A stretch of DNA of 64,000 bases from Diphasiastrum complanatum (lineage: Eukaryota > Streptophyta > Lycopodiopsida > Lycopodiales > Lycopodiaceae): the NCBI GenBank assembly GCA_029204225.1, contig CM055095.1, forward strand, positions 22,772,633 to 22,836,632, read 5' to 3'. The notes under the pieces are model-generated. The model saw nothing but the letters and a program-made list of their open reading frames with translations, was not told the DNA's origin and searched no databases. Position 1 is the stretch's first letter. The number at the start of each line of letters is the position of its first letter. Shown piece by piece: positions 4,273 through 39,369 of this stretch. Made by a program: the position numbers and the translations under genes.

Positions 4273-5660
4273 CTCCCTCTTGAACCTTGCAACTTTGCAC
4301 GTTTAATCCAATTGGCTTTCTTTGCTTTGTGAAGAGTGGCTTGTTGAGCGGCTTCGTGAGCAGATCTGCAATCATGTCTTCAGATTTTATGTACTAGACC
4401 TGGAGCTCTCCTTTTGAGATCAAATCTCAAATGTGATGGTACTTCAGAGGTATGTGGTTTGTCTTGGAATGGAAGACAGGATCCTGGGACAGATAGATGG
4501 CACTTTGAGAGTCTATCATCATCGTGCATTGTCCTCCTTGTGATATCCCAATTGTCTCCAGCATCATATGCAACCACACTACCTCGTTCGCCACACTACC
4601 TCGTTCACCACCCTTGAAGCTGCGACATATTCAGCTTCGCAAGAGGATTGAGCTACCAAGATTTGCTTTTTTCATATCCAGTTGATTGTTGCTCCACACA
4701 CTATTGAACATCCTCCAGTTACAGACTTGCTGTCATCTTTGCAGCTTGCCCAGCTTGCATCACTATAGTGGTGCAGCTCGAATCCTTTCTTTCGTTTTCT
4801 ACTCTGTAGATTAATCCCATATTGTGGGTACCCTTCAGATATTGTAGGATTCGTTTTGCCATTTGCCAATGTGCCATGCCAGGATTGGAAGAGAATTGGC
4901 TTAAAGCATAAACAGAGAAAGCTAGATCGGATCTGGTACAAATTGCAAGGTACATCAAACTACCGATTAGGTTTTGGTATGGTATACCTGCCATCTTCTG
5001 TTTTTGTTCTTCTATTTTTGGACAATCCTGCTTTGTCAGCTTGGCTCCAACTATCATTGGCGTGGCCTTTTCTTTGTAGTCCATCATGTGGTACTGCTTC
5101 AACACTTTTCTGGCATATTCTGACTAACTCAAGTGCATTTTTCCCTTTATTCGATCTCTATTGTCTTCGGCCCGAGGCAGTTTATTGCTTCTCCCAGATC
5201 TGTGATTTCATAATTCTCAGAAATCTGACTCTTTGTGTCCTCGATTAGTATCAAGGAATTACAGTCTGGTTGTGTAGGATTGAAGTCTAGAGACTTCAGA
5301 AGACCATCAAGCTTCTTGTACCAAGCTCGTGATGCCTGCTTTAGACCATAAATGCATCTCTGCAGCCGACAGACATATTGTCGATTGTCGGGGTCTTCAA
5401 ATCCTTCAGGCTGTTTCATGAAGATTTCCTCCTCTAGATCCCCGCGGAATAAGGCTATCTTTACATCAATCTGGTTAATTTCAGAGATTGTATTGTGTAG
5501 CGTATGCAAGGAGTAGTCGTATGCTTGTCATCTTGACCATCGACAAATATGTGTCGAAATAATCAACACCATATCTCTGTGTGTAGCCCTTTGCGACAAG
5601 CCTTGCCTTGTAACGGCCAACAGTGCCATCTGATTTCATTTTATTTTTGTACACTTTTAG
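4172..5660 (-). pseudogene. Copia reverse transcriptase and RNase H
   Basis: The RT is recognised by [17 protein letters not shown] at about 5600, FMKQPEGF and IYGLKQASRAWYKK in 5147-5509, then a short deletion that removes the YVDD catalytic motif before ITDLGEA. RNase H follows in 4672-5105 (TRSDLAFSV, then SDASWASCKDDSKSVTGG) and the terminal IADLLTKPLNKPL block in 4172-4375. The frame is broken several times and the catalytic YVDD is lost, so the copy is inactive. Confidence 0.85.
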
Positions 5661-5667
5661 ATCAGTT

Positions 5668-6844
5668 AGATTGTATTTATTGTATGTTCACTGGGAGAAT
5701 AGACACGCTTGCCACTCTAAGGGCTAATACGGATGCATTCACGTATGTGAGTGAGTATATAGATGAAACTTTGAAGCCTTATGCCATACAAATTCCTGGC
5801 TCAACTATCATGGGGATTCCATATAACTTGCTTAGTTATATATGGAAAGGAGATCGACCCTTTATTGCTCGTCTCAACAGATTTATTAGTCACTTGGGTA
5901 ACGATCATTACTTGGAGCTGACCAAGGATCAGCTGAAAACTTTTGATCTTGAAAGTGTAGGAAGGAAGTTTCTATCCGGTGAGATTACGATTACCTTAAT
6001 GAGTTTCCAGCGACTATGGCCTGCAACGAACACAATAATAGTGAGCAGGTGAACGGGATGCACGACCCGGGTGAAGAGGAAGATTTATCCGCGGAGCATG
6101 AAGCAGTCTTGGCTGAGCAAGAAGCAACAGGTGCATCCACATCAGCGGAGCTAGAAGATATAGATGAGTCCGATGATGTCATGCTTCGAATCCATGGCCT
6201 TGCTCCAATCATCATTGATGGGCAAGAGTATGTGCTCATGCATGACTTGCAACATATTCTCGGTTTGCGAGAAGATGAGATGTTGACAGCGTTGGTAAAT
6301 TTGCAGAATGGCACTTCCACTTTCGACCACACCCAGCTTGATGACACGTAGTGTTTGTTATGTTTGTTTGTCTTCATTATACTCATTTTGCAATAATTTG
6401 AACCAAATGCAGGATGCAGTGGAGCTTGATGCATTTGCTATGCGAAGGGGTGGCGTTCGGGAGAAAGTTGAAGCAAGAACTCTGGACAGGTCTTTGGCCC
6501 ACTACATTGGGAACTTGCCCAACAACTTTATTTTCTGCCTTAGCAACAAGTACAGTCCAGATGGACCGACGGAGCTTTTTAAATGCAAAGCACTCTCCAA
6601 GCACATTGGTGAGGTGGAGTTGTCACCGTCAGCGCCAAAGGCTTACTGTGTCCTCCGAAAAGTCGTTTTGAATGATTTCTGCCCAGGATTCAAGACCTGG
6701 CTCATTCTCTCGGGTTTAATTGGCCCTTATGAGAATGAGAGTGATGCTCCTAAATTAGCATTAGAAATATTAAAACCAGTACTATCATCAGAAAAGCGAT
6801 CAGAGAAGCTGGATTCCCGTCTGAAGGAAATGGACCGAATGTGA
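5668..6844 (+). CDS. Unrecognised protein, probably two or more exons
   Basis: The plus strand shows a coding-like segment at about 5690-5994 ([28 protein letters not shown]), a second from about 5996 to 6294 (acidic, [16 protein letters not shown], then [20 protein letters not shown]) and a third at 6413-6844 ending [14 protein letters not shown] phase-0 intron 6295-6412 (GTAAAT to ATGCAG) joins the last two in frame. A one-base frame change or tiny intron lies near 5985. A polyadenylation signal AATAAA overlaps the stop at 6844. The N-terminus is unclear because the sequence abuts Copia beta near 5660. I do not recognise the family. It is not an LTR-element protein and is convergent with the histone-like gene. 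Confidence 0.5.
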
Positions 6845-7036
6845 ATAAAAATTTTGTCGTTTTTTTTTCTTGTGGACTCTCCTAATTATTTGTTGTAATT
6901 GTATGATGTGCTATTCTTTGAATTTAAAATTTAATTTTTTTTTCTCTGATAAAAATTTCTTTTGTCTTTTTCGTGGCGTGAAAATCATGCAAGGGCGCGA
7001 CCAGGGGCCGTTTGACCAGGTCAAAATGGCATCCCA

Positions 7037-7162
7037 TAGTACTGAAAATTTTAAATCACTGCATTCACATAGATGGTACTAAAATTTTCAAATCACTGCA
7101 TTCACATAAACAATACTGAAATCAGATATTAAACTCAATCACAGCAATTTGCATTCACATAA
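7037..7162. repeat. About 38-bp imperfect tandem repeat, 2-3 copies
   Basis: The unit contains TACTGAAAATTTT then AAATCACTGCATTCACATA, repeated at about 7037 and 7076, with a diverged third copy ending GCATTCACATAAC at about 7162. It lies between the 3' ends of two convergent genes. Confidence 0.7.
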
Positions 7163-7233
7163 CCTGAAATTCTTCAATATACTTGACACCAAATCTTTAG
7201 TATAATAAAAATAAAATCATGTACATGATATTT

Positions 7234-8417
7234 TTAATTGCACTCTCTCCTTAGACTTCTAGCTAGGTGGAGATCCTTCGGGAGTATTGTGACTCTCTTC
7301 TCATGGACTGCACACAAAAATGAGTCCTCAAAAAGTTGCGTTAGGTACATTTCCGCAGACTCTTGTATCGTAGACACATCATCTGCCATAACTCTATTCC
7401 CCAAGGAAAATTCATCGATTATTTTCTTTACAAGCCTCACAAATGGGACCTTAGGTATCAGAAATTTTACAGACTTCTGATAACTCCGTATATCTTGGAG
7501 CCACTTTGCGAGCCTGCGCTTCCTACGCGGTCGAGGAGGTAGTGGTTGCATCTTGCGAAGCTCCTTTCCAGCCCATGGTGCTGCACGAGGGGCCGGCCTA
7601 CCCCTGCCATGCTCTACAGTCCTACTTGGGCTAGCTGCAACAGAACTTGGAGGTGGTGGATGTGGAGGTGGTAGTGGAGGTGGTGGTGGAGGTGGTGGTG
7701 GAGGCGATGGAGGCGGAGGTGGTGGAGGCGATGTTGGCGGTGTGGGCAGTGGTGATGGCTGCTGAGCTGCAGGGTTCCGTCGCTTTGATGTAGAGCCTGC
7801 CTTGCGATGATTCTTTTTTTTTTTTTTTCGCTCGTGTGCTCCTCTCCCTGACCATCTGTGTATCGCCTTCTACTTCATCCTTGTTGTATGCGACAGCGGG
7901 TGCCCTCATCAGAACCACCCTCCAGTAACAACATCATCGGACCCATCACCGGGCCGTGACTTGGGGGTGACACGGTAGGTGTGGTGTCACCCGATATCCT
8001 CAAATCTGCTGTGTCCATGCCCATTGCTAGTGGAAATGGGTCGAAGAATGCATCATTAAGAACCGACAACTCACCCGATGCCACAAGCTCCTCATCCAGG
8101 AACTTCATTGTGTCCTCCCGCTTGGTTGCCATCGGGGAAGGGCTTTTTTGTCGTGGTGGCTGCTGCTGCTGCTGGTCTTCTTGCGGGGGCTACTTACTCT
8201 GGTCCTCCTGTGTAGCTGCTGTGTGGGCCATGTCCTCTTCAGCTTCATGCTGAGTGGCCGGATCATCCTGAGATGCTGTTGGGCTGCAACTCCTACTCCT
8301 GCTTCTGCTCCCCTGTCTCTCTCTCTCATCTAGGGTGGCTAGTGCATCCCTATGGAGCAATGCAGTCACTCTGGGATCTCTAGCCGTTTGTTTCGTCTGT
8401 GCCATTTCCTCCGACAT
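7234..8417 (-). CDS. Divergent histone H3-like protein with long proline-rich linker
   Basis: Exon 1 is 8417-8198, the intron 8197-7848 (GTAAGT to GGTCAG) and exon 2 7847-7234. The phases match and give a 277-residue frame. The second ATG (8405) would place AQTKQTAR at the mature N-terminus, the H3 tail ARTKQTAR with R2 changed to Q, Lys4 kept, and DPR instead of KS after it. A Ser/Arg-rich and acidic segment, a lysine run, a proline-rich linker and a basic stretch follow. Exon 2 ends in a full H3 fold: IRSYQKSVKFLIP, VPFVRLVKKIIDEF, AEMYLTQLFEDSFLCAVHEK, RVTILPKDLHLARSLRREC. Loop 1 has the canonical H3 length, so a CENH3 assignment is not clear. Inferred role: chromatin protein or H3 variant. 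Open frame and splice signals argue for a real gene, but expression is unproven. Confidence 0.75.
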
Positions 8418-8913
8418 TGGTTAGCCTTTGAAAACGTATCAGAGAACACGAGAGCTGAAAAATAGAGACTTATCCAAACTAGCAGTTGAAGTGTATCTCT
8501 TCGATGACAAACCTGATACACTGCTCCACAACTACAATGGCTTGATCAAAATTGACTTACCGACTGCAAATCCACAAAACAATCACACTCACCACTCACC
8601 AAGAGCATCCAAAGTGTGATTATCGACCCGTTCTTCATCCTCTGCGTGTCCCACACACAGCTCGTCCAATGCAAGTCCGCTATCTTGCCCAATGGCTTTC
8701 AACTAGCACCACCTCGCACTTCCATCACCTGTGACCACCAATATGTGTGTATTTAGCAGATTGGCCAACTCTATTTTAGAGGATGACATTGTGATGCAAC
8801 TAAGAACACTAATTTACCAGCTAACTAGTAGTCTAATTGAACAGGACAAGCTAAATTACGAGGAAAGAAATTTCAACAAAGCAAGAAGTGACAACAAAAT
8901 GAAAACCGCCACT

Positions 8914-8924
8914 CTTATATAGAC
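8914..8924 (-). promoter_or_regulatory. TATA box candidate for the H3-like gene
   Basis: The minus strand reads TCTATATAAGA here, about 500 bp upstream of the H3-like start codon. If used, it implies a 5' leader of roughly 460 nt, possibly with an intron. The stretch 8418-8913 has no ORF of its own. Confidence 0.4.
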
Positions 8925-9687
8925 GGACGTCTTTTCAAAAATAAATATTATTATAAAACAAAATAAAGCAATTTCTATTTATAACAACAATCCAATTCGT
9001 CAGTAATATTTATCACAAAGGAATATTCAAATTACAATCCAACATAAATTGCTTCTATTCCATCTCATCAGTTTTCGTAGCTTCTCTAGCATTGGTTTCC
9101 AAAACATTGGATGTTGGTGTCCTCGGCATCCATCTCTTTCCAACTCAGACTCTAAACATCCTCCATTCTTGATGCCTTGTTTTAGCATTAGAGGATTGCC
9201 ATGCCGTCTTTCTAACTGAATTTGAATTGGAGATCATTGAACTCAACTCTTCAGTTCTTGTGTTTTGAAAGTGTCCTCGGCCCAAAACTCCTCTGTAAAA
9301 CCATTGGAATATCTCAACCAATGCATTACTAAGACCCTTTCCTCCGCCATGGCGTGAATTTTTTAAATATGTAGCCTTTGCCCTGTAATGACTCTTTTCC
9401 ATGCCTTGCGTATTCCAGATAGCTAATGATCCATAGGTTTTCATAAACCAAGTCCATGAGCATAGAAGATGTGCTGTTCATAGAAAATTTGTATTAGTTT
9501 AAATTTTTATAAATACATAAATACGAAAGTAAAAAATATGAGACACACATACTATGTAGTGAGCTATGTGTGTTTCTCCCCATGCATAGATCATCAATTC
9601 AGTAAATGTTTTGACTTCTCTTGCGTATCTATACAAATCTTCATCTCTCACAATTTTTTTGTTGATAGTTTGTGACAAGGCATCAAA

Positions 9688-10364
9688 TGTGAAAGATTCA
9701 ACTAGTTTCATCACATTTTGCAATAGTTCCATATTTGGCATATTGAGGCCAAAGCTTGTTTTAGACTTAGAGGTTGACTTTTCAAAGTTCATTAGTCTAA
9801 ATTTCATTTGAATAAACACTTTTTGAAAGTGTGGGAAAGTTAGAATGCGAGTTTGAGTAGATTCAATTTGAATAGTTGGGTACATTGAATCTAGACCCAA
9901 AATTAGTAGGGTTAGCATTTTGGTGGGAAAGCCAAGTGGCCAAATAGGGTTTGGACCTGCTATAAAAGGATGTAGCTCATGAAGAGAGTGATATTCTCTC
10001 TTATCTATCTCATTTCATGCTTATACATGGTTCTCTTGGGTTCTACTATCCATTGGTGCACTATCTTGGTGCACTATCCATTGGTGTACTATCTTGGTGA
10101 TTGATTGCAATTCTATGTGTAGAATGATCTATATTTGTTATTTTTGGATCCACACGTGTGAAATACAGTAGCTTGCTAGTTTTGTACGGACAACAACAGT
10201 ATATAATCATTTCATTCAAGTTTGATCAAGTTCTATTGGTGTTTGCATCTCAATTTGTGTGTAGATGCTAATTTTTCTACATTGGTGAGATTGGTAGTGT
10301 ATTTTTCTTTCTAACCAAAGATCATTCAAGTAGATTGGATCTTAAGGATCTAAAATCTTTCACA
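9688..10364 (+). repeat. 5' LTR of Copia 1
   Basis: 677 bp, TG to CA, with a TATA box (TATAAAAG) at 9961-9968. It is longer than the 3' copy mainly because of a local duplication of the TCCATTGGTG and ACTATCTTGG motifs around 10050-10100. Confidence 0.95.
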
Positions 10365-10377
10365 CGGTATCAGAGCT
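10365..10377 (+). other. Primer binding site, tRNA-Met type
   Basis: CGGTATCAGAGC directly follows the LTR and differs from the usual TGGTATCAGAGC by its first base. This is the minus-strand priming site of Copia elements. Confidence 0.85.
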
Positions 10378-10966
10378 TGTGTTTCAGGTTATGAAAGAGG
10401 AAATCAGATCTATCAATGATTTGGTGAAGATATCAAGTCTAGAGCATGCTAGAGAGGATTCTACACCAAAATCGGATTCTTTTTGCTTTTGTAGATTGGA
10501 TCTTTTGTAGATTAAAACACTAAATAGGTCAATATACTTGTTCGATTCCAATTTTTGAACTCACATACTAGATTTGGCCGATTTTTGGATCATTGGTTCA
10601 GCCTAAGTGGTGGCTTATAGATTGCATATCAAATTTTCTGCATTTGTATGTAGATTTGGAATAGTAAATTTTTTGTGATTTTGTCAAAACCCTAATTTTG
10701 ATTGGATCTCTAGATAGTGAGGTTGCTGTACTTCATTTGAGTGTGTTTCAATCCTAGGAAGTGGCAAAAGTCATTAGATTGAGGATAGATCATAGGTTGA
10801 TCAAGATTCCATGATTCTTTGTGTTGATTTGCTTGGATAAGTGCTAGAAGAGAATTTGTGAGATAGTTTCAAATCTTGGTGATTTCTTTTGAAAGCATTT
10901 GTTGTTGTTCAAAGGAGTGCTTTGTGCATTGAAGCAGGTTGAAAGAGAAGATCAGGTCATTGCTAC

Positions 10967-11120
10967 ATGGCAACCTCAATTGGAGTCATGTTGGAAGCCA
11001 ATGATAGGCTTACCTCAAGTAACTATTCATTGTTGAAAGTGAGGATGGAGTCACTTCTTGAGATGAATGATGTTTTGGATATTGTTGTAGGTTTGGAGGA
11101 GAGACCAGCAACACAATAAG
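10967..11120 (+). pseudogene. Copia 1 gag, N-terminal fragment
   Basis: About 46 codons starting at the ATG at 10967 match the gag starts at 35065 and 29847 (motifs NDRLTS, KVRMESLLEMND, EERPA). A stop and a deletion junction near 11110-11135 then lead into integrase sequence. Confidence 0.85.
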
Positions 11121-11193
11121 ATCAATTTTGGTATGACATGAGCATGGGATCAAGAGGGAGTATACAACATCAAGGACCCCACAACAAAATGGA

Positions 11194-12516
11194 GTGGCTA
11201 AAAGGAAGAATAGGACTTTATGTGAAAGTGCTAAAGCTATGAGGTTAAGTGCTAATCTTGGCAAACCATTTTGGGATCAAGCTTTGTTGTGTGCCAATTT
11301 CTTGTGCAATAGGTGGCCGAGTGCTGTTTTGGATGGAAGGACACCTTTTGAGATGCTATTCAAGAGGAGGCCGAGTGTCAACTTTCTAAGAACCTTTGGA
11401 TGCACATGCTATGTCAACATTACTCTTGATGATAGGACCAAGGAGGATCCATCTTCAAGAAGAGGTATTTTTGTTGGATATAGTGAGGTGAGTAAAGCCT
11501 ACAAGGTTTACATTCCTTCTACTAACAAAGTGATTGTTGGTAGAGATGTCATTTTTGATGAGGGGAACATTCCAAAGGTGTCTTCAAGCATAATTGATGG
11601 TAGAGTGGATGGATCTAACATTTTTGATGTTGATGAGAAGGATTTTACTTTGGATGGTGGTGATGATGGACCTTCATCAAGTCAAAAGCCAAGGAGAACA
11701 TCAAGAGAAAGACAAGTATCTTCAAGGCTCACATATGATCAAAAGGGTAAGCAAGTAGTTTCTAAAAATTATGTTGCTTTCCTAACCTCTTTGGATGAGC
11801 CTACAAGTGTAGATCAAGCAAGGAAAGAAGAGGAGTGGATCCAAGCAATGGATCTTGAGTATCGATCTCTTACGAAGAGTGGAACATCTTTTGGAGGATC
11901 TTCTTGTGTACATGGAGATATGCAAGTGGATGGATGTTATCTTTCTATAAAATCATGTAATGGATCTGGAAAACAAATTTTGCTAAATGACTTTGATGAT
12001 CAAGTTGAAGACCAAGAGGTTGTTCTCAAAGCGCTTCAACTGGTCAAAAGGGAAGGTGGCAATTTGGAGCTAGTCAAGAGCATCAAAGGAGAGGTAATTG
12101 GCAAAGGTGTTATGGACCTATTTTTGCAGCATATTGAAGACTCAAGTAAGGTCAAAGGAGCAGCAAGGAAGTGTTTTTCAAGTCTACTTTACTTGTTCTA
12201 TCTCATGTTTGAGCATTTTCATGTGGATATGTGCAGGTTGTCAAGATATGGTAAAACTAGCTACATTGGTGAACATTGTTTTGATGTTGGATTTGTACTA
12301 GCATTCTTGGCTGGTTTTGCTGCTGGAAATGAAGCTATTGGAGGTTCATTGTGTCACTCATTCATGGCCAAGTCATCAAGTGTTGATGATATGTTATGGC
12401 AAGATGGACATGGAGGCTCAATCATGGAGTATCATGGTGGATACATGGCAACAAAGGACAAAGGAGGAGGAGACATTCAAGCAGAAGTTGATCACTCACA
12501 TATATTGTTTGTTTGA
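11194..12516 (+). CDS. Copia integrase C-terminus fused to a non-pol module
   Basis: An open frame of 440 codons. Residues 1 to about 210 are the end of Copia integrase and the linker to RT: CESAKAMRLSANLGKPFW, FGCTCYVN, RRGIFVGYSEVSKAYKVY, VGRDVIFDEG, and the RT start EEWIQAMDLEYRSL. At about 11880 it switches to a segment with no RT motif (GNLELVKSIKGEVIGKGVMD, SSLLYLFYLMFEHFHVDMC). The same segment is at about 37560-38280 in Copia 2. The frame stays open across the fusion. Homology to integrase extends upstream to about 11135. The module's function is unknown. Confidence 0.7.
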   Translation: MAKRKNRTLCESAKAMRLSANLGKPFWDQALLCANFLCNRWPSAVLDGRTPFEMLFKRRPSVNFLRTFGCTCYVNITLDDRTKEDPSSRRGIFVGYSEVSKAYKVYIPSTNKVIVGRDVIFDEGNIPKVSSSIIDGRVDGSNIFDVDEKDFTLDGGDDGPSSSQKPRRTSRERQVSSRLTYDQKGKQVVSKNYVAFLTSLDEPTSVDQARKEEEWIQAMDLEYRSLTKSGTSFGGSSCVHGDMQVDGCYLSIKSCNGSGKQILLNDFDDQVEDQEVVLKALQLVKREGGNLELVKSIKGEVIGKGVMDLFLQHIEDSSKVKGAARKCFSSLLYLFYLMFEHFHVDMCRLSRYGKTSYIGEHCFDVGFVLAFLAGFAAGNEAIGGSLCHSFMAKSSSVDDMLWQDGHGGSIMEYHGGYMATKDKGGGDIQAEVDHSHILFV

Positions 12517-12741
12517 TGTATTTTTCCAAAGAGTTCAGTGTCGAAAGCATGGTGGAGGTAGTTCATTTACATTCTATTTGATTCTTCATGTTCTAGTTAC
12601 ATCTTGATATGTAAAATTGATGTAAGAAATAGTGAAGCATCCCAAGTGGACACTATTCTCTATATCAATTATGGTTGTTTCTATTTTGAACATTACATGA
12701 TCATTTAAAGGAGATCTATTCTTAGGAAGAATATCATTCTT

Positions 12742-12981
12742 ATGATGGATCAAAGTTCTATTGTCAAAAACTATGCTAGGAGCAAGCATATTGAGATACA
12801 ATATCATTTTGTGAGGGAGCGAGTCATTGCAAAGGAGGTGGAGCTTCAACATGTGTCTTCAAGGGAATGTGTAGCTGATATCTTCACCAAAGCATTGGGA
12901 AAAGACTTGTTCATGAAGCATAGGAATTCACTTGGAGTACTATCAAAGTCTATGCTAAAACTAGTTGAAGAGGGAGTGTGA
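12742..12981 (+). pseudogene. Copia RNase H, C-terminal fragment
   Basis: ARSKHIEIQYHFVRERV, VELQHVSSRECVADIFTKAL and KHRNSLGV are the standard end of Copia RNase H. The stop codon overlaps the start of the 3' LTR. The polypurine tract gaagagggag is at 12967-12976. Confidence 0.9.
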
Positions 12982-13625
12982 AAGATTCAACTAGTTTCAT
13001 TACATTTTGCAATATTTCCATATTTGGCATATTGAGGCCAAAACTTGTTTTAGACTTAGAGGTTGACTTTTAAAAGCTCATTAGTCTAAATTTCATTTGA
13101 ATAAACACTTTTTGAAAGTGTGGAAAAGTTAGAATGTGATTTTGAGTAGATTCAATTTGAATAGTTGGGTACATTGAATCTAGACCCAAAATTAGTAGGG
13201 TTAGCATTTTGGTGGGAAAGCCAAGTGGCCAAATAGGGTTTGGACCTGCTATAAAAGGATGTAACTTGTGGAGAGAGTGATCTTCTCTCTTCTCTATCTC
13301 ATTTCATGCTTATACATGGTTCTCTTGGGTTCTACTATCCATTGGTGCACTATCTTGGTGATTGCTTGCAATTCTATGTGTAGAATGATCTATATTTGTT
13401 ATTTTTTGATCCACATGCGTGAAATACAGAAGCTTGCTGGTTTTGTATGGCCAAAAATAGTACATAATCATTTCATTCAAGTTTGATCAAGTTCTATTGG
13501 TGTTTGCTTCTCAATTTGTGTGTAGATGCTGATTTTTCTACATTTGTGAGATTGGTAGTGTATTTCTCTTTCTAACCAAAGATCATTCAAGTAGATTGGA
13601 TCTTAAGGATCTGAAATCTTTCACA
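12977..13625 (+). repeat. 3' LTR of Copia 1
   Basis: 649 bp, TGTGAAAG to TTTCACA, near-identical to the 5' copy apart from the local duplication there. TATAAAAG is at 13250-13257. Confidence 0.95.
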
Positions 13626-16792: not shown

Positions 16793-18825
16793 TTATGTCC
16801 TTCTTTGTCGCTTTCGGCTAGTTGGCTTGCTGTGAAAAATAGCCTTGTCCCGGGCTTCATTCTCTTCATTTTCTTGTTCCAATGTCAGTCCTTTTGTTGC
16901 CAGGAAATAGTTGTTCTTCAAGTTGTACTCTTCTTGGAATGACAAATTTGGATAACCACCCATTCCTTGATTGCCGATTGGTGCAAGGGGGTTTTCAATT
17001 AATGTATTATTAACAAGATGTGCATACCAACTATCCTCAGTCAGGATTTCAGACATCTCGACAGAAGGGACAGTTAGTGAAAGGGCATCATATGTATATT
17101 CGAGAAATTTCTCTTTAATATACAGTTGTTGGACAGACAGGAGGGCATACGAAATGAGAGAAGCAATATTTACATGGCTGTAAATATAATATGGTCTAGT
17201 TATGGGGTTAGTGGAGCAAAGTATATTGTTTGCTTTTACTTCCTCCAAATAATGAGAATATAGTTAGTTTTCCAGTTTGTGTAGATTTCCCATAGATCAG
17301 GAAATAAGAACTGATGAGTAACTCGGGAAGAAACCACTTTAGAGTTAGAAACAACTTCTTTTACATCAAGAATGTTAATTGATTCTAACTTATTCAAATA
17401 CTCATCCAATGCTGGAAAAATATTATTTTCAAATGTTCTTAGATATTTAAGATGTATATATACAAGGATCCTGCGACCACATGAATATAGTTAGTTTGCA
17501 CATCGAACTTGTTCTGAACAATGGCAAGGGTGAGGATTTCTTTTTTATGTACAGTTAGTCTAGACCATAAAGTATTTATGTTAGAAAAAGTCCAAGGGTT
17601 CTCCCATTGTTCTTTTGTGTAACCAAAACGTTTAGGTAAAAAAAGGTAATCCATTCTCCATTGGAGTTCTGGACTACAAAAAGGTGGAATAAAAAATCTT
17701 AGTTCCTGATGAAATGTCTGAAATTCTGACCTTAGTAGTGAGTAGACAATCTTGTTTTTCTTTACAGCTGCTCCACTTGGTGACGTTTGGGCTTGGTATG
17801 GAATGACGCTTAACGCCTCAAGTTGGTCTTCAGTAGCTTGTACCTCTGCAGCATAATTGGTTTCGGTCTGTGTTTCTTGATCTCTCAGGATCTGCCTGCA
17901 GATGGTATCCGTTTGGATGGCCTTTTCTGACATTACTGGTGCTAGCTCATCTGTCTGCGTCTCCTGATCTTGTCCTTGCACTGGTTCTTCTGCATCAAGA
18001 ATCTGCATTTGGCCTGATTGGAATTCGGCCTTTTCTAATTCTTCCTTTAGCTTCTCATAAGCAATCATCTGCAGTTACAGATATTGCATTTGGAAGGTCT
18101 GGATCATCCTCTCCTGGATTCCCTTCCATGCTACCGGATCGATTCGGTACCTGCCATGAGATACGCAGGCATCGAGTGTGACTTCGGCGCTGATTCGCCA
18201 CAGTATTGCCTCTTTGGCCTGTTTCTTGTGTATCTGATTGTCTTTCTTTAACATTTCTGCAGAATTTTGCAGTTGGGCAATTGATTCTTGAGCACTGTTG
18301 AGTTCATTGCTCAGCTCTGTATTGCTACTCTGAAGAGTAGTTCGCACTCGTCTCTCCTCCTGCAAAGAAGCCTGCAGGGTCTGAAGTTGTTGTTTAAGCA
18401 GTATGTTCTCACTTTTGAAGGCGTTGTACTGCTCTTGCATTTCTTCCAGCACTTCGAACGTGGCATCCTGCCTTCCTTTCACTTCTTCAAGCTTTGTATC
18501 TTTTCTGCTCAGCTCCGCCTTAGCTGCTTCAAGCTCCTCATTTCTATAAGCCAACTCAGCCTTTGTTTCGATCAGCTCTGTATCTTTTTGGGTGAGCTCT
18601 GTTCAGACTCTTTCATACTTGGACCCCAACTTTCTGGATACCTTTTCCAAGCTAGCAAGATGCTGAATAGCTGCCCTAGTATCTGGCAGTAGTGTTCCAA
18701 AAACCTTTTGATATAACTCGACATCGAGGATTGGTTCCTCGACATCGCTTTCACTGCCCTACTGGTCATTAGAAAGCTGCTCTTCTCCTTGTGGTTCTGG
18801 CTCTTGTGGTATTTCAGCCTGATTA
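16793..18825 (-). pseudogene. Gypsy A extra ORF, distal part: coiled coil with TQT motifs
   Basis: This lies between pol and the 3' LTR and is not pol. Read from 18825 it has an acidic start, then a long coiled coil in 18554-18075 (EELEAAKAELSRKDTKLEEV, ELNSAQESIAQLQNSAEML), one in-frame stop at 18075, then the same frame to 17439. That part has three motifs QETQTD, AIQTDT and QETQTE (17960-17865) and then an aromatic-rich domain (FFIPPFCSPELQWRMDYLF). The last open piece is 17248-16793 with a basic tail (SRKRQRR). Extra ORFs in this position are known in Tat-type Gypsy elements. Its proximal half is at 42366-43340, separated by the inversion. Confidence 0.7.
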
Positions 18826-33923: not shown

Positions 33924-34468
33924 TGTGAGAGATTTCAACTAGTTTAGTCTAGTTTAGTCACATTTTGGTAAATTGTCAATAAGAGGCCAAAACTCATTTT
34001 AGACTTAGAGATAAGCTTTTTGAAGTTGTATTAGTTTAAAATACATTCAATAAACACTTTTGGAAAGTGTGGGAAAGTTGGTAGTCGAGTTTGAGAGAGA
34101 TTCAAATTTGAACTTTGGGTACATTGAATCTAGACCCAAAAATAGTAGGGTTTACATTTTGGAGGGAAAGCCAAGTGGCCAAATAGGGTTTGGAAACTCT
34201 ATAAATCTTGCAATCTTGTGTGTAGAATGATCATTTATTGCTATTTTTGGTTCCACACATGTGAAATACAGTAGGGTACTGTAATTGTACGGACAACAAA
34301 CATATTTTATGTTTTGGTTCATGTTTGATCAATATCTCTTAGAGTTTGCATCTCATTTTGTATGTAGATGCTGATTTTTCTACATTGGTAGGATTGTTGG
34401 TTTGCTCCTTATTGTAACCAAAGATTTGGGACATGGATTGGATCTTGAATGATCTGAAATCCTTCACA
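33924..34468 (+). repeat. 5' LTR of Copia 2, with internal deletion
   Basis: 545 bp against 654 bp in the 3' copy. A single 109-bp block, equivalent to 38929-39037, is missing immediately after the TATA box (34200-34205). Confidence 0.95.
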
Positions 34469-34480
34469 TGGTATCAGAGC
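34469..34480 (+). other. Primer binding site, tRNA-Met
   Basis: TGGTATCAGAGC directly after the LTR. Confidence 0.92.
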
Positions 34481-35064
34481 TCTTGTGTTTCAGGTTATGA
34501 AAGGATCAGCCATCTTTAGCAAGGATTTTGGAGGAGTTACCAATGCTAGAGCATGCTAGATTGATCTCTACTCAAAAATCAACATTTTTGCATGTGTAGA
34601 ATTGATATTTTGTAGGTCAAAACTCAATATATGGTTATATACTTGTTCAATTCCGATTTCACACTTGGCTTACTGGTGATTTTTGGTGCATTAGGAAGGT
34701 CTCATTGGAGTCTACAAGAAGATATACCAAGTTTCTAGAAATTGCATGTAGAATCTGAGATATTCAATTTTTTGTGATTTTGTCAAAACCCTAATTTTGA
34801 TTGGATCTCTAGTTTGTGAGGTTAATGAACTTCATTTGAGTGTGTCTCAATCTTAGGAAGTGGCAAGAATCATTAAATTGAGGATAGATCATAGGTTGAT
34901 CAAGATCTCACTATTCTATGTGTTGATTTTCTAGTTAGAAGTGCTAGAAGAGATTTGAGAGGTTCCATATCTTTGTGATATCTTCTTGAGTTCATTTGTT
35001 GACATTCAAGAGAGTGCTTTGTGCATTGGAATAGATTGAAAAAAGAAGATCAAGTCACTTCAAC

Positions 35065-35793
35065 ATGGCTACAAGTGGTGGATCTATGTTGGAGAGCAAT
35101 GATAGGCTTACCTCAATCAACTATTCTACTTGGAAGGTGAGGATGGAGTCCTTATTGGAGATGAATGAGTTGATGGAGATTGTTGCAGGTGTGGAGAAGA
35201 GACCTCAAGCACCTCAAGATCAAGTGAGGTATGACAAGAGAGCAAAGAAAGCTCTACACATGATCAAGATGAATGTTACCAATGAACTTCTCAAGGAAGT
35301 TGGTAAGTGCACATCATCTTTGGAGGCTTGGGAAGCTTTGAAGAAGCTTTGTGAATACAAGTCTACATCAAGAGTGCTTACTCTTAGGAGGCAAATCTTT
35401 CAAAGTTTGCAAAAGAAGGAAGAGAGTACTCATGCTTTTGTTTTGAGAGTTAAAGCATTCAATGATGAGTTAGCATGTATTGATGAAAGCATTAAGGAGG
35501 TAGAACTTGTTCAAGTTATACTTAATGGCTTGTTGGATGATCATGCTAATCTTGTTCAAAGTTTTGCTATTCAAAAGACTTTGCCAAGTATTGTGGATTT
35601 GCAAGAGATCTTGGTGAATGAGGAGTATAGGCTTCAATCAAGAGGAGGTGGATTCACATCGACATCTCATTATGAAGAGGATGCTATGTTCATCAAGGCA
35701 AGTTCAAGGGCAAAGGCAAAGGCAAGTGGTCTGAAGGGCAAGATCAAGGTGAGACTTCTTCTTTTGGCAAAAAGAAAGATAAGTCTAAGTTGA
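35065..35793 (+). CDS. Copia 2 gag
   Basis: 242 codons from the ATG at 35065. A UBN2-type gag: NDRLTSINYSTWKVRMESLL, ELLKEVGKCTSSLEAWEALK, LVQVILNGLLDDHANLVQS. Compared with the related gag at 2899, the reading frame slips at about 35696, where one G appears to be lost in a G/A-rich tract, so the last 30 or so codons are out of frame and the zinc knuckle lies in the next frame. A ribosomal shift cannot be excluded, but a simple deletion is likelier. Confidence 0.85.
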   Translation: MATSGGSMLESNDRLTSINYSTWKVRMESLLEMNELMEIVAGVEKRPQAPQDQVRYDKRAKKALHMIKMNVTNELLKEVGKCTSSLEAWEALKKLCEYKSTSRVLTLRRQIFQSLQKKEESTHAFVLRVKAFNDELACIDESIKEVELVQVILNGLLDDHANLVQSFAIQKTLPSIVDLQEILVNEEYRLQSRGGGFTSTSHYEEDAMFIKASSRAKAKASGLKGKIKVRLLLLAKRKISLS

Positions 35794-38276
35794 AATGCTT
35801 TTATTGTGGAATCAAAGGGCATTTTGCAAATGAATGTTTGAAGAAGCAAAGAGATGAAGGTAGCAAGCAAATCAACTTTACTACTAATGATGAGGGTCTA
35901 GGTGGTGGTGATTCTCTTTTGATGTGTTCTTCAAGTCCAATATCAAGTGAAGGTGACAAAGATTCATGGTGGATTGATAGTGGAGCTAGCTCACACATGA
36001 CTAGTCACAAGGAGTTCTTTACTTCTTTGGTCACTTATGATGGAGCCAAGAAAGCAATTCACATGGCCAATGGTGGTGAGTGTGTGATTGAAGGTATTGG
36101 TTCAATTCCTATTTGTCTCTCTACTAATAAGAAAGCAAGACTTGATGGTGCTCTTTACATTCCTTCACTTTCAAAGAATTTGATAAGTGTTGGTCAAATA
36201 ATAGAGAAAGGATACATGGTAAAGTTTGGGGGTGATGCTTGTTTCATTACAAAGGAAGAAATCTTGGTTGCTAGGGGCAATAAACAAGGTAGACTTTTCA
36301 AGCTTGATGCTTTTGTTATGGCTATCAAAAAGGATGGAATGGAAAAGGAGATTGGTCTCAACTTTCCAAAGTTACCTTTTAGCATCAATAAGATTGGTGG
36401 ATCTTATGCAAAGTCTAACAAGCTTCCTTATGCTAGATCTAGGTCAAGATCTAATATGCTTCTTGGAGATGTTCATCTTTGTGCTAACTTGGCTAGTCTT
36501 GAGGATAATGATGGTGTTTCAATGGTTCTTCATGGCAAGTGCAAGCATGCAAAAGGTAAGGAAAGAGCTAACTTCATCAATGGAGGTGAAGGTTCTTCCT
36601 TGGAAAAGATTGTTGCTAATGATTTCTTTGATCATATGGAAAAGGATGTTGCTAGGTGCATGCATGAAGGAGGTGGTTCTTCTACATTCTTTTGTTATGA
36701 TTTCAAGAAAGTCATTTTTCCAGCAAGTGGAGTCACATGTCTTCATAAAGAGAGTAGATCAAATGGTTCTATCAAGAGACTTAGTGAGGGAGATAATCAC
36801 AAGTCAAGAAGAAGAGAAGTATGTGAAGAGTTCAAAGTAGGATGTACTTTGAATGATGTCATTGTGAATGATAGTGAGGAAGAATCATTATCATATGATT
36901 CATTACCTAAAACATTGAGTAGAAGTTCTTGTTTGAAAAAAGAGAGTACTTCAATCATCCTTATGTTGAAGGTACTAATCATTTTTCTCATGGCTTCTAA
37001 TGTCTTTGAGGTTTCTACTTCTTATGATGCAATCATTAAGAGGGAGTCTTATGAAGGAAAGAGCAATGAAAGATTGGTTCTTGGAAAGATTCAAGGCATG
37101 GATCTCACATCTCTTCATCAACTCAAAGGATTCTATGATTGTGAATTTATCACTCATAATCGAGATGGCAAAAGGTTGGTTGGAGAAGACTACATGGAGC
37201 AAATCGAGAGGCAATTTATTCAAGGCAAGGGAGATCTCATTGGTGAGCTTATTGAGGTTTGTTATGGGCTCAAGAGGGCTGGATTTATTAGGTTTGATAC
37301 TCACCTTCACCTACTCTACTTCATGTTGGATGGAAAGTTTGGAAACTATCTTTTGATTTATGATGGTGACATTGGTGACATTGTTTTCACTAACCTTTGT
37401 GGAAATTCGAGATCAAGCATTGATGAGTTCTTGTCGGATCTAGATCATATGTTTGAGAGGGAGTATTTTCAGAGGTTCAAGTCTGAATATATTCATATCT
37501 TTGATATCTTTGATGATCAAGAGAAAGGTAAGCAAGTGGAAGCGACACACTTTGCTTTACTCACATGTTTTGGAGAATTTTCTTGTGTAGATGATGCTAT
37601 GCAAGTGGATATTGGTTCTCATGGTTTTCATACTGGAAAAGCAAGTAATGGATCTGGAAAACAAAGTTTGTTCAATGACTTTGATGGTCAAGAGGAAGAT
37701 CAAGAGGTTGGTCTCAAAGGGCTTCAACAACACAAAAGGAAAGGTGGCAATTTGGAGCTAGTCAAGAGCATCAAAGGAGAGGTAATTGGCAAAGATGTTA
37801 TGGATCTGTTTTTGCACCTTATTGAAGACTCAAGTAAGGTCAAAGGAGAAGCAAGGAAGTGTTGTTCAAGTTTACTTTACTTGTTCTATCTCATGTTTGA
37901 GCTATTTCATGTGGATGTGTGCAAATTGTCAAGATATGGACAAACTAGCTACATTGTCTTGCAATATCTTATTGTTGGAGTTGTACTAGCATTCTTGGAT
38001 GGTTTTGCTGATGGAAATGAAGCTAATGGAGGTTCAATATGTCACTCATCCATGGCTAAGTTCTCAAGTGTTGAGCTACTTGGTGCCAATACTTGGAGAT
38101 TGTCAATTTTTGGTGAATTTATGGTCATTTTCTTGTGTCAAGTAGACCTTGAAGATGGACTAGTGCAAACTACTTGGTTTATGGAGTCATGTGGTGCTAG
38201 ATTTGCATCATTTATGTACTCACATACTCATGTATTTTCAAGGTTTGATGGTTTCTTGTGGCAAGATGGAGATTGA
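35790..38276 (+). CDS. Zinc knuckle, protease motif and eroded pol in one 828-codon frame
   Basis: Residues 2-20: CFYCGIKGHFANEC zinc knuckle. About 60-75: WWIDSGASSHMT, the Copia protease active site DSGAS. About 165-175: GRLFKLDAF, GAG-pre-integrase. Next NKLPYARSRSRSNM echoes the start of integrase, but no DDE core follows. Around residues 470-580 faint RT echoes occur (YMEQ, CYGLKRAG, SSIDEFLSDLDHMFE), without YVDD. The last 240 residues contain the module shared with 11880-12516 (NLELVKSIKGEVIGKDVMD), with hydrophobic helices (LLYLFYLMFELF, LIVGVVLAFL). It is open throughout. Non-autonomous element protein of unknown role. Confidence 0.7.
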   Translation: MKCFYCGIKGHFANECLKKQRDEGSKQINFTTNDEGLGGGDSLLMCSSSPISSEGDKDSWWIDSGASSHMTSHKEFFTSLVTYDGAKKAIHMANGGECVIEGIGSIPICLSTNKKARLDGALYIPSLSKNLISVGQIIEKGYMVKFGGDACFITKEEILVARGNKQGRLFKLDAFVMAIKKDGMEKEIGLNFPKLPFSINKIGGSYAKSNKLPYARSRSRSNMLLGDVHLCANLASLEDNDGVSMVLHGKCKHAKGKERANFINGGEGSSLEKIVANDFFDHMEKDVARCMHEGGGSSTFFCYDFKKVIFPASGVTCLHKESRSNGSIKRLSEGDNHKSRRREVCEEFKVGCTLNDVIVNDSEEESLSYDSLPKTLSRSSCLKKESTSIILMLKVLIIFLMASNVFEVSTSYDAIIKRESYEGKSNERLVLGKIQGMDLTSLHQLKGFYDCEFITHNRDGKRLVGEDYMEQIERQFIQGKGDLIGELIEVCYGLKRAGFIRFDTHLHLLYFMLDGKFGNYLLIYDGDIGDIVFTNLCGNSRSSIDEFLSDLDHMFEREYFQRFKSEYIHIFDIFDDQEKGKQVEATHFALLTCFGEFSCVDDAMQVDIGSHGFHTGKASNGSGKQSLFNDFDGQEEDQEVGLKGLQQHKRKGGNLELVKSIKGEVIGKDVMDLFLHLIEDSSKVKGEARKCCSSLLYLFYLMFELFHVDVCKLSRYGQTSYIVLQYLIVGVVLAFLDGFADGNEANGGSICHSSMAKFSSVELLGANTWRLSIFGEFMVIFLCQVDLEDGLVQTTWFMESCGARFASFMYSHTHVFSRFDGFLWQDGD

Positions 38277-38646
38277 GGCTCATTCATGGAGTTTTATGGT
38301 GGAGACATATCAAGAAAGGACAAAGTTGGAGGAGACAAGCAAGCAAGTGGTCATCACTCACATTTATTGTTTGGTTGCTGTAATTTTCCGGAGATTTCAG
38401 AGTTTGAAACATGGAGGAATCATTTCATTCACATTCTATTTGGTTCTTCATGTTTTAGTTATATCTTGATGTGTAAAATTGATGTAAGAAATAGTGAAGT
38501 ATCCAATTTGGACACTATTCTCTATATCAATTATGAAAGATACTTTAGAACCTTAGAAAGAAGATCTATACTTAGGATGGAGATCATTCTAAAGTTGGAT
38601 CAAAGTTCTATTGTCAAAACTATGCCAAAACTAGTTGAAGAGGGGG

Positions 38647-39300
38647 TGTGAGAGATTTCAACTAGTTTAGTCTAGTTTAGTCACATTTTGGTAAATTGTC
38701 AATAAGAGGCCAAAACTCATTTTAGACTTAGAGATAAACTTTTTGAAGTTATATTAGTTTAAAATACATTCAATAAACACTTTTGGAAAGTGTGGGAAAG
38801 TTGGTAGTCAAGTTTGAGAGAGATTCAAATTTGAACTTTGGGTACATTGAATCTAGACCCAAAAATAGTAGGGTTTACATTTTGGAGGGAAAGCCAAGTG
38901 GCCAAATAGGGTTTGGAAACTCTATAAAAGGATGTAACTCGTGGAGAGACACATCTTCTCTCTTCTCTCTCTCATTTCATCATTATACATGGTTCTCTTT
39001 GGGTTCTACTACTCATTGGTGCACTATCTTGGTGTTATCTTGCAATCTTGTGTGTAGAATGATCATTTATTGCTATTTTCGGTTCCACACGTGTGAAATA
39101 CAGTAGGGTACTATAATTGTACGGAAAGCAAACATATTTTATGTTTTGGTTCATGTTTGATCAATATCTCTTAGAGTTTGCATCTCATTTTGTATGTAGA
39201 TGCTGATTTTTCTACATTGGCAGGATTGTTGGTTTGCTCCTTATTGTAACCAAAGATTTGGGACATGGATTGGATCTTGAATGATCTGAAATCCTTCACA
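38647..39300 (+). repeat. 3' LTR of Copia 2
   Basis: 654 bp, TGTGAGAG to CTTCACA, with TATAAAAG at 38923-38930. The polypurine tract gaagaggggg precedes it. Between 38277 and 38646 there is only 3' module sequence parallel to 12520-12740 in Copia 1. Confidence 0.95.
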
Positions 39301-39369
39301 TATATTGCTTCTTCAAAAATACCAAAATGTGTTTGCTTGGTCGATGGATGATTTAAATGGGGTGAACAT

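What the first reader, a model, noticed from the sequence alone, without database searches (positions are those of the whole stretch)
7234..8417. Histone H3-like protein with a split tail and fold
The exon 1 start carries AQTKQTAR after an internal Met and exon 2 ends in a complete H3 fold. About 170 residues lie between them: Ser/Arg-rich, acidic, lysine-rich and proline-rich. Conventional H3 has tail and fold contiguous in about 135 residues. Keeping Lys4 but losing the Lys9-Ser10 context would decouple K4-type reading from K9 marks. It could be a lineage-specific H3 variant, a CENH3 relative or a chromatin factor mimicking the H3 tail.
Basis: partly seen in the sequence, partly recalled or inferred. 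Interest (0 to 1): 0.85.

Follow-up and report, generated by a model that had tools for sequence, protein, structure and literature searches.

The report
Clubmoss histone H3-like gene, probably broken
The window holds one copy of a clubmoss histone H3-like gene in which the tip of the H3 tail sits far from the H3 fold; the family looks real, but this copy shows signs of decay, so it is probably not a working new histone.

Summary
In detail: an H3 fold (Pfam Histone 2.9e-26) at 7234-7548 and a 7-of-8 match to the H3 tail tip at 8402-8379, about 170 residues apart if 8197-7848 is spliced out. The close relatives found are four fold-only proteins of one clubmoss, Diphasiastrum complanatum, 63-83% identical; none shows the tail. 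The fold's stem was strongly constrained: 45 of 56 H3-conserved columns kept, 3 of 36 others. So an H3-like gene probably functioned and multiplied in clubmosses. This copy looks decayed: the 'intron' has exon-like G+C (54%) and codon-position bias and continues exon 1's frame for 104 codons after one TAG; its acceptor lacks a pyrimidine tract. All 6 changes private to this copy fall at H3-conserved columns (small sample). Centromeric H3 is less likely: no loop 1 extension, and published lycophyte CenH3 is highly conserved (mean omega 0.024); but trees do not exclude it. The K4/K9 idea is untested. No transcript, relative's DNA or dN/dS was available; the window's own genome could not be searched.

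The parts
8914..8921 (-). TATA-box-like TATATAAG, possible core promoter
   Evidence: sequence read directly; not tested
8455..8599 (-). possible 5'UTR intron, GTGAGT...TTTTTCAG
   Evidence: sequence; G+C 0.40 for 8456-8600; inferred
8198..8417 (-). proposed exon 1: MSEE-MAQTKQTAR, then Ser/Arg-rich and acidic stretch
8379..8402 (-). AQTKQTAR, H3 tail-tip octapeptide (R2Q)
   Evidence: 7 of 8 matches, the only one of 127,954 in the window above 4
8190..8192 (-). in-frame TAG, within the donor bases GTAAGTAG
7848..8197 (-). proposed intron, 350 nt, 54% G+C; more likely former coding sequence
7875..8189 (-). 104-codon open stretch (plus stop) continuing exon 1's frame after the TAG
   Evidence: codon-position test 23 of 5000 shuffles, openness 136 of 5000
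7814..7828 (-). run of 15 A, lysine run in all three frames; possible site of a frame change
   Evidence: role inferred
7234..7847 (-). proposed exon 2: lysine run, proline-rich linker, H3 fold, stop
7234..7548 (-). H3 histone fold and its immediate N-terminal basic stretch

Best explanation
This is one copy of a multi-copy H3-like gene family known so far from one clubmoss species and this window. An ancestral H3 gene duplicated; its fold diverged while staying an H3 fold (shown by the constraint pattern), and a long low-complexity stretch came to lie between the tail tip and the fold (seen in this copy only). The ancestral product presumably paired with H4 in nucleosomes as a minor H3 variant (inferred). 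The window copy is most likely decaying: the stretch called an intron was coding, and a stop codon plus frame changes now separate the tail frame from the fold frame. If it is expressed at all, the products are probably a 71-residue tail peptide from the second ATG or a fold-only protein starting at MQPLPPRP, like the D. complanatum models (inferred).
For: Four D. complanatum relatives at 63-83% identity, then a drop from 201 to 114 bits to assorted H3s in the list of the best 120. Family consensus keeps 45 of 56 H3-conserved columns against 3 of 36 others (Fisher 2.9e-12), and variation within the family is lower at conserved columns (21 of 56 against 23 of 36, p 0.012). Proposed intron: G+C 0.543 as in exon 1 (0.545), against 0.28 for a 61-nt putative intron of the neighbouring gene, 0.40 for the possible 5'UTR intron, 0.38-0.41 for 5' flanks and 0.31 for the 3' flank; 8 of 27 bases before the acceptor are pyrimidines; open for 104 codons (136 of 5000 shuffles) with exon-like codon-position composition in exon 1's frame (23 of 5000; 46 of 5000 for best of three frames). 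A search for relatives of 152-485 residues found none at 1e-5 among 23 candidates. Six of 6 window-private changes lie at H3-conserved columns, when 41 of 54 eligible columns are conserved, i.e. no avoidance. Mean BLOSUM of one-step differences between window and relatives is not significantly above random nonsynonymous change: 2116, 2209, 868 and 617 of 5000 simulations as high for P0001-P0004 (16 of 17, 18 of 19, 20 of 23 and 26 of 38 differences used).
Against: The fold frame itself has no stop or frameshift in this copy. The donor GTAAGT is strong and the proposed splice keeps frame. The window-private sample is 6 changes, and the BLOSUM test also counts changes on the relatives' branches, so neither pins decay on this copy alone. 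A weaker permutation test of constraint within the family gave 712 of 10000. G+C also reaches 0.51-0.52 in 100-base windows at 8750-8601, upstream of the start, so high G+C is not unique to coding stretches here. No transcript, no relative's DNA and no dN/dS could be obtained. One search scored few candidates and drew words from the fold only. Whether D. complanatum copies carry the tail upstream is unknown.
Confidence: 0.6

Rival explanations
1. Working spliced H3-like variant: the 350-nt intron is real and yields a 277-residue protein (273 from the second ATG) whose H3 tail tip is tethered by a long linker to an H3 fold that pairs with H4. The stop codon lies inside the donor sequence GTAAGTAG, so the intron may be recent, made from exon sequence (intronization).
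For: Strong donor, frame kept across the splice, intact fold frame, TATA-like box and a plausible 5'UTR intron; some constraint within the family.
Against: Exon-like composition and open frame inside the intron, purine-rich acceptor region; no long relative found; no sign of constraint on changes private to this copy.
Confidence: 0.2
2. Clubmoss centromeric H3 (CENH3) or a paralogue of it.
For: Long divergent N-terminal region, LIP..F after the alpha-N helix as in the plant CENH3 rows, Trp in place of Ala47 as in human CENP-A (these reference sequences are recalled). AU tests do not reject a clade with plant CENH3 (p 0.103; 0.383 without P0034), with human CENP-A (p 0.412), or with all six CENH3/CENP-A rows (p 0.465, log-likelihood only 0.27 lower). 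Identity to the CENPA-like protein P0087 (49 of 104) equals that to Arabidopsis H3.1 (49 of 104).
Against: Loop 1 has the canonical H3 length, while 6 of 6 CENH3/CENP-A rows examined have 1-2 residues more; but so do 3 of 20 rows grouped as H3 (P0008, P0058, P0061), so the mark is not exclusive. The tail begins MAQTKQTAR, like H3. Published lycophyte CenH3 has mean omega 0.024 (5 sequences; PMC5024113 Table 1), which fits poorly with a family of at least four copies in one species; the comparison is indirect, since omega of this family could not be measured. No centromere data.
Confidence: 0.1
3. An H3 gene captured and multiplied by a transposable element, as reported for a hAT element in fungi (PMC6710886, abstract and outline seen).
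For: Four D. complanatum copies on four different sequences by locus tag and contig length; the window is rich in LTR retrotransposons.
Against: Of 6 short inverted-repeat pairs in 4600-9700 none brackets the gene; no transposase or retroelement domain in the frames scanned between 5.7 and 9.0 kb; no second copy of 4.0-9.6 kb in the window. Flanks of the other copies could not be read.
Confidence: 0.1

Closest known systems
Diphasiastrum complanatum hypothetical proteins O6H91_05G054700, 13G100400, 07G108800, 11G030400
   Same: Same fold family, 63-83% identical; 16 of 92 columns are fixed in all five members but differ from the consensus of 20 H3 rows
   Different: Annotated as 102-105 residues, fold only, starting at the Met that corresponds to MQPLPPRP here; no tail shown
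Plant H3-like (HTR) genes, as grouped in PMC4357034
   Same: Degenerate N-terminal part, departs from H3.1/H3.3 signature positions, introns variable (passages seen)
   Different: Here the tail tip is kept and separated by about 170 residues; fold 47% identical to Arabidopsis H3.1 (49 of 104)
Plant CENH3 / CENP-A
   Same: Divergent long N-terminal region; LIP..F; Trp near the start of the fold as in human CENP-A
   Different: No loop 1 extension; H3-like tail tip; fold identity 38-41% to three recalled plant CENH3 (40, 41, 43 of 104)
P0034, unnamed 218-residue protein from a 1119-base contig
   Same: Groups with the clubmoss family (98/94); proline-rich region before a W-bearing fold start; 50 of 104 identical
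   Different: One residue more in loop 1; both are long branches, so the grouping may be attraction; origin unknown

Membership tests
Histone H3 fold family (PF00125, H3 type) | H3-type histone fold with alpha-N, alpha-1, alpha-2, alpha-3 | tested here: met
   30 of 59 columns conserved in at least 90% of 20 H3 rows are kept in all five members
Canonical H3.1/H3.3 | contiguous tail of about 40 residues with K4, K9, K14, K27, K36 | tested here: not met
   only the first eight residues are recognisable; similarity beyond residue 8 is no better than shuffles
Plant H3-like (HTR) group | degenerate N-terminus and departure from positions 31, 41, 87, 90 | tested here: met
   positions 41, 87 and 90 read from the alignment, position 31 has no counterpart; criteria from passages; a loose group, not a clade
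CENH3 / CENP-A | loop 1 longer than in H3 | tested here: not met
   same length as H3.1; 6 of 6 CENH3/CENP-A rows are longer (4 recalled, 2 from the database), but also 3 of 20 H3 rows
CENH3 / CENP-A | clade with plant CENH3 | tested here: inconclusive
   AU p 0.103 and 0.383; 0.465 for all CENH3/CENP-A rows together
CENH3 / CENP-A | localisation at centromeres | not testable with these tools
   needs antibody or tagged protein
Transposon-borne gene | terminal repeats or transposition gene in the same unit | tested here: inconclusive
   none found at this locus; other copies' flanks could not be read

The most novel reading that the evidence does not exclude
Clubmosses carry a working H3 variant class in which a K4-bearing H3 tail tip is tethered to a divergent H3 fold by a linker of 170 or more disordered residues, made by intronization of former exon sequence, giving nucleosomes with a far-reaching H3K4 tail and no K9, K27 or K36 in their usual context.
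Probability: 0.12. Interest if true: 0.75.

Novelty: new variant of a known kind. Interest (0 to 1): 0.38.

Why it matters
Plant H3-like genes are numerous and poorly understood. A clubmoss H3 family that kept fold constraint while its tail was stretched apart would be a natural test of which tail positions a nucleosomal H3 needs. If this copy is merely decayed, it still marks a family of which eight literature searches gave no sign in their listings (open-licence library only).

Tried and rejected
Search of the window's own genome for histones: no answer in 7 attempts, so paralogues, a conventional CENH3 and canonical H3 genes in this genome were not examined. A viral origin: scans of viral contigs with the fold profile (76 pattern matches, none confirmed) and with the last part of the neighbouring gene (9, none confirmed) gave no relative. 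A fuller H3 tail in exon 1 (the LAT...R pattern looked tempting): rejected, no better than shuffles. A transposon around the gene: no bracketing inverted repeats. Confirming my recalled Arabidopsis CENH3 against the PDB: at 1e-30 only two H3/CENP-A chimeras matched, so the recalled plant CENH3 sequences are unverified. Lycophyte CENH3 in other papers: passages of PMC11687628, PMC12708537 and PMC9210943 gave nothing on clubmoss CENH3. dN/dS: no DNA of relatives is held.

Full report
What is there. On the minus strand, 8417-8198 encodes MSEEMAQTKQTARDPRV..., and 7847-7234 encodes a lysine run, a proline-rich stretch and an H3 fold ending LRRECN. Joined at a GTAAGT donor and a CAG acceptor they give 277 residues in frame. 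The fold scores 2.9e-26 to Pfam Histone and 4.3e-26 to plant H3.1 in the PDB. A model from a 47-row alignment has helices at 24-37, 45-59, 67-95 and 102-111 (mean pLDDT 71.6, pTM 0.45, modest confidence), and Foldseek's best matches are nucleosomal H3 chains (E 5e-07, TM about 0.5). AQTKQTAR matches the H3 tip at 7 of 8 residues, and no other of the window's 127,954 six-frame octapeptides exceeds 4. The remaining H3 tail is not detectable.

Where it comes from. A fold search found 4 proteins among 6 candidates, all Diphasiastrum complanatum, a clubmoss (taxonomy). A profile search scored 7,988 candidates (only those sharing most words), found 237 at E 0.001 and listed the best 120; the four stand at 201-212 bits and the next protein at 114. 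The window is therefore most likely from a clubmoss (inference; its species is unknown), and 'clubmoss-restricted' rests on one named species. All four relatives are annotated as fold only, 102-105 residues, from the Met that corresponds to MQPLPPRP. A search for longer relatives (152-485 residues, words from the fold only) had 23 candidates and none at 1e-5.

Was the family functional? Taking Arabidopsis H3.3 as the starting state, the family consensus keeps 45 of 56 columns that are conserved in at least 90% of 20 H3 rows, and 3 of 36 others (Fisher 2.9e-12). The window alone keeps 42 of 56 and 4 of 36. A fold drifting freely would not do this. Within the family, variable columns are fewer at conserved sites (21 of 56 against 23 of 36, p 0.012); a related permutation test on mean conservation was weaker (712 of 10000). 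Sixteen of 92 columns are fixed in all five members but differ from the H3 consensus.

Is this copy functional? Against: the proposed intron has G+C 0.543, like exon 1 (0.545), whereas the 5' flanks are 0.38-0.41, the 3' flank 0.31 and a putative 61-nt intron of the neighbouring gene 0.28; on the other hand 100-base windows at 8750-8601 reach 0.51-0.52, and the fold itself is 0.44. The stretch continues exon 1's frame for 104 codons after one TAG (open in 136 of 5000 dinucleotide shuffles) and shows exon-like codon-position composition in that frame (23 of 5000; 46 of 5000 for the best of three frames); three uncalibrated flank stretches of the same length scored lower (best -3.39, -4.84, -3.82 against 2.76). 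Only 8 of 27 bases before the acceptor are pyrimidines. The readings on either side of the A run (KDEVEGDTQMVRERSTRAKKKKK in one frame, KKKKKNHRK in another) look like pieces of one former frame (inference). Six changes are private to the window copy, all at conserved columns, when 41 of 54 eligible columns are conserved; three sit where the other four members match H3 (E73K, A88D, A91T). The other members have such private departures too: 1, 1, 2 and 4. One-step differences between window and relatives have BLOSUM means not significantly above random nonsynonymous changes (2116, 2209, 868 and 617 of 5000 simulations as high), but these include changes on the relatives' side. For: the fold frame is open, the donor is good, a TATA-like box lies at 8921-8914 and a plausible 5'UTR intron at 8599-8455. 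The TAG lies inside the donor bases GTAAGTAG, so a change that made the stop may also have made the donor; intronization is possible.

Kinship. In a 31-row tree (1 window row, 24 of 120 database proteins, 6 typed references) the family is one clade (96/89) and joins an unnamed 218-residue protein, P0034 (98/94); the bootstrap had not fully settled. Without P0034 the family is a clade at 100/100 on a branch of length 1.28. A clade with plant CENH3 is not rejected (p 0.103; 0.383 without P0034), nor one with human CENP-A (p 0.412), nor one with all CENH3/CENP-A rows (p 0.465). Loop 1 has H3 length; the six CENH3/CENP-A rows are longer, but so are 3 of 20 H3 rows. Identity of the window fold is 49 of 104 to Arabidopsis H3.1, 49 to the CENPA-like P0087, 50 to P0034, and 40, 41 and 43 to the recalled plant CENH3. 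Zedek and Bures report 5 lycophyte CenH3 sequences with mean omega 0.024 (PMC5024113: abstract, Methods and Table 1 seen). So a conserved CenH3 exists in lycophytes, which speaks against this multi-copy family being it; their species list was not seen and the comparison is indirect. PMC4357034 (passages) describes a heterogeneous plant H3-like group into which this family fits.

Literature. Eight searches showed no description of this family in their listings; beyond listings I saw only the passages and sections named. The library lacks most subscription journals.

Mechanism. Shown: H3 fold, H3 tail tip, constraint on the family's fold. Inferred: pairing with H4, entry into nucleosomes, decay of this copy. 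Not tested: transcription, K4 marking, readers.

Noticed in passing
window 5690-6844, plus strand: Convergent, probably multi-exon gene with no Pfam match reaching cut-off; a copia-like reverse transcriptase fragment (5150-5527, minus) adjoins its 5' side; it ends about 390 bases from the H3-like gene's stop.
   Followed up: partly
window 9688-13625: Copia-like element with LTR-like direct repeats 9688-10364 and 12977-13625 (91% identical) and an integrase/SH3-like ORF at 11137-12513.
   Followed up: partly
window 33983-39310: Second, related copia-like element, 75-86% identical to parts of the first, with a zinc knuckle.
   Followed up: no
window 16796-18602, minus strand: Three adjoining long frames, one coiled-coil-like, with no Pfam match reaching its cut-off.
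   Followed up: no
P0034 (unnamed protein, 218 aa, contig of 1119 bases): CENP-A-like protein with PGPSR repeats that groups with the clubmoss family; possibly long-branch attraction.
   Followed up: partly
window 7036-7109: Two tandem 37-base copies (86%) in the 3' flank between the two convergent genes.
   Followed up: no
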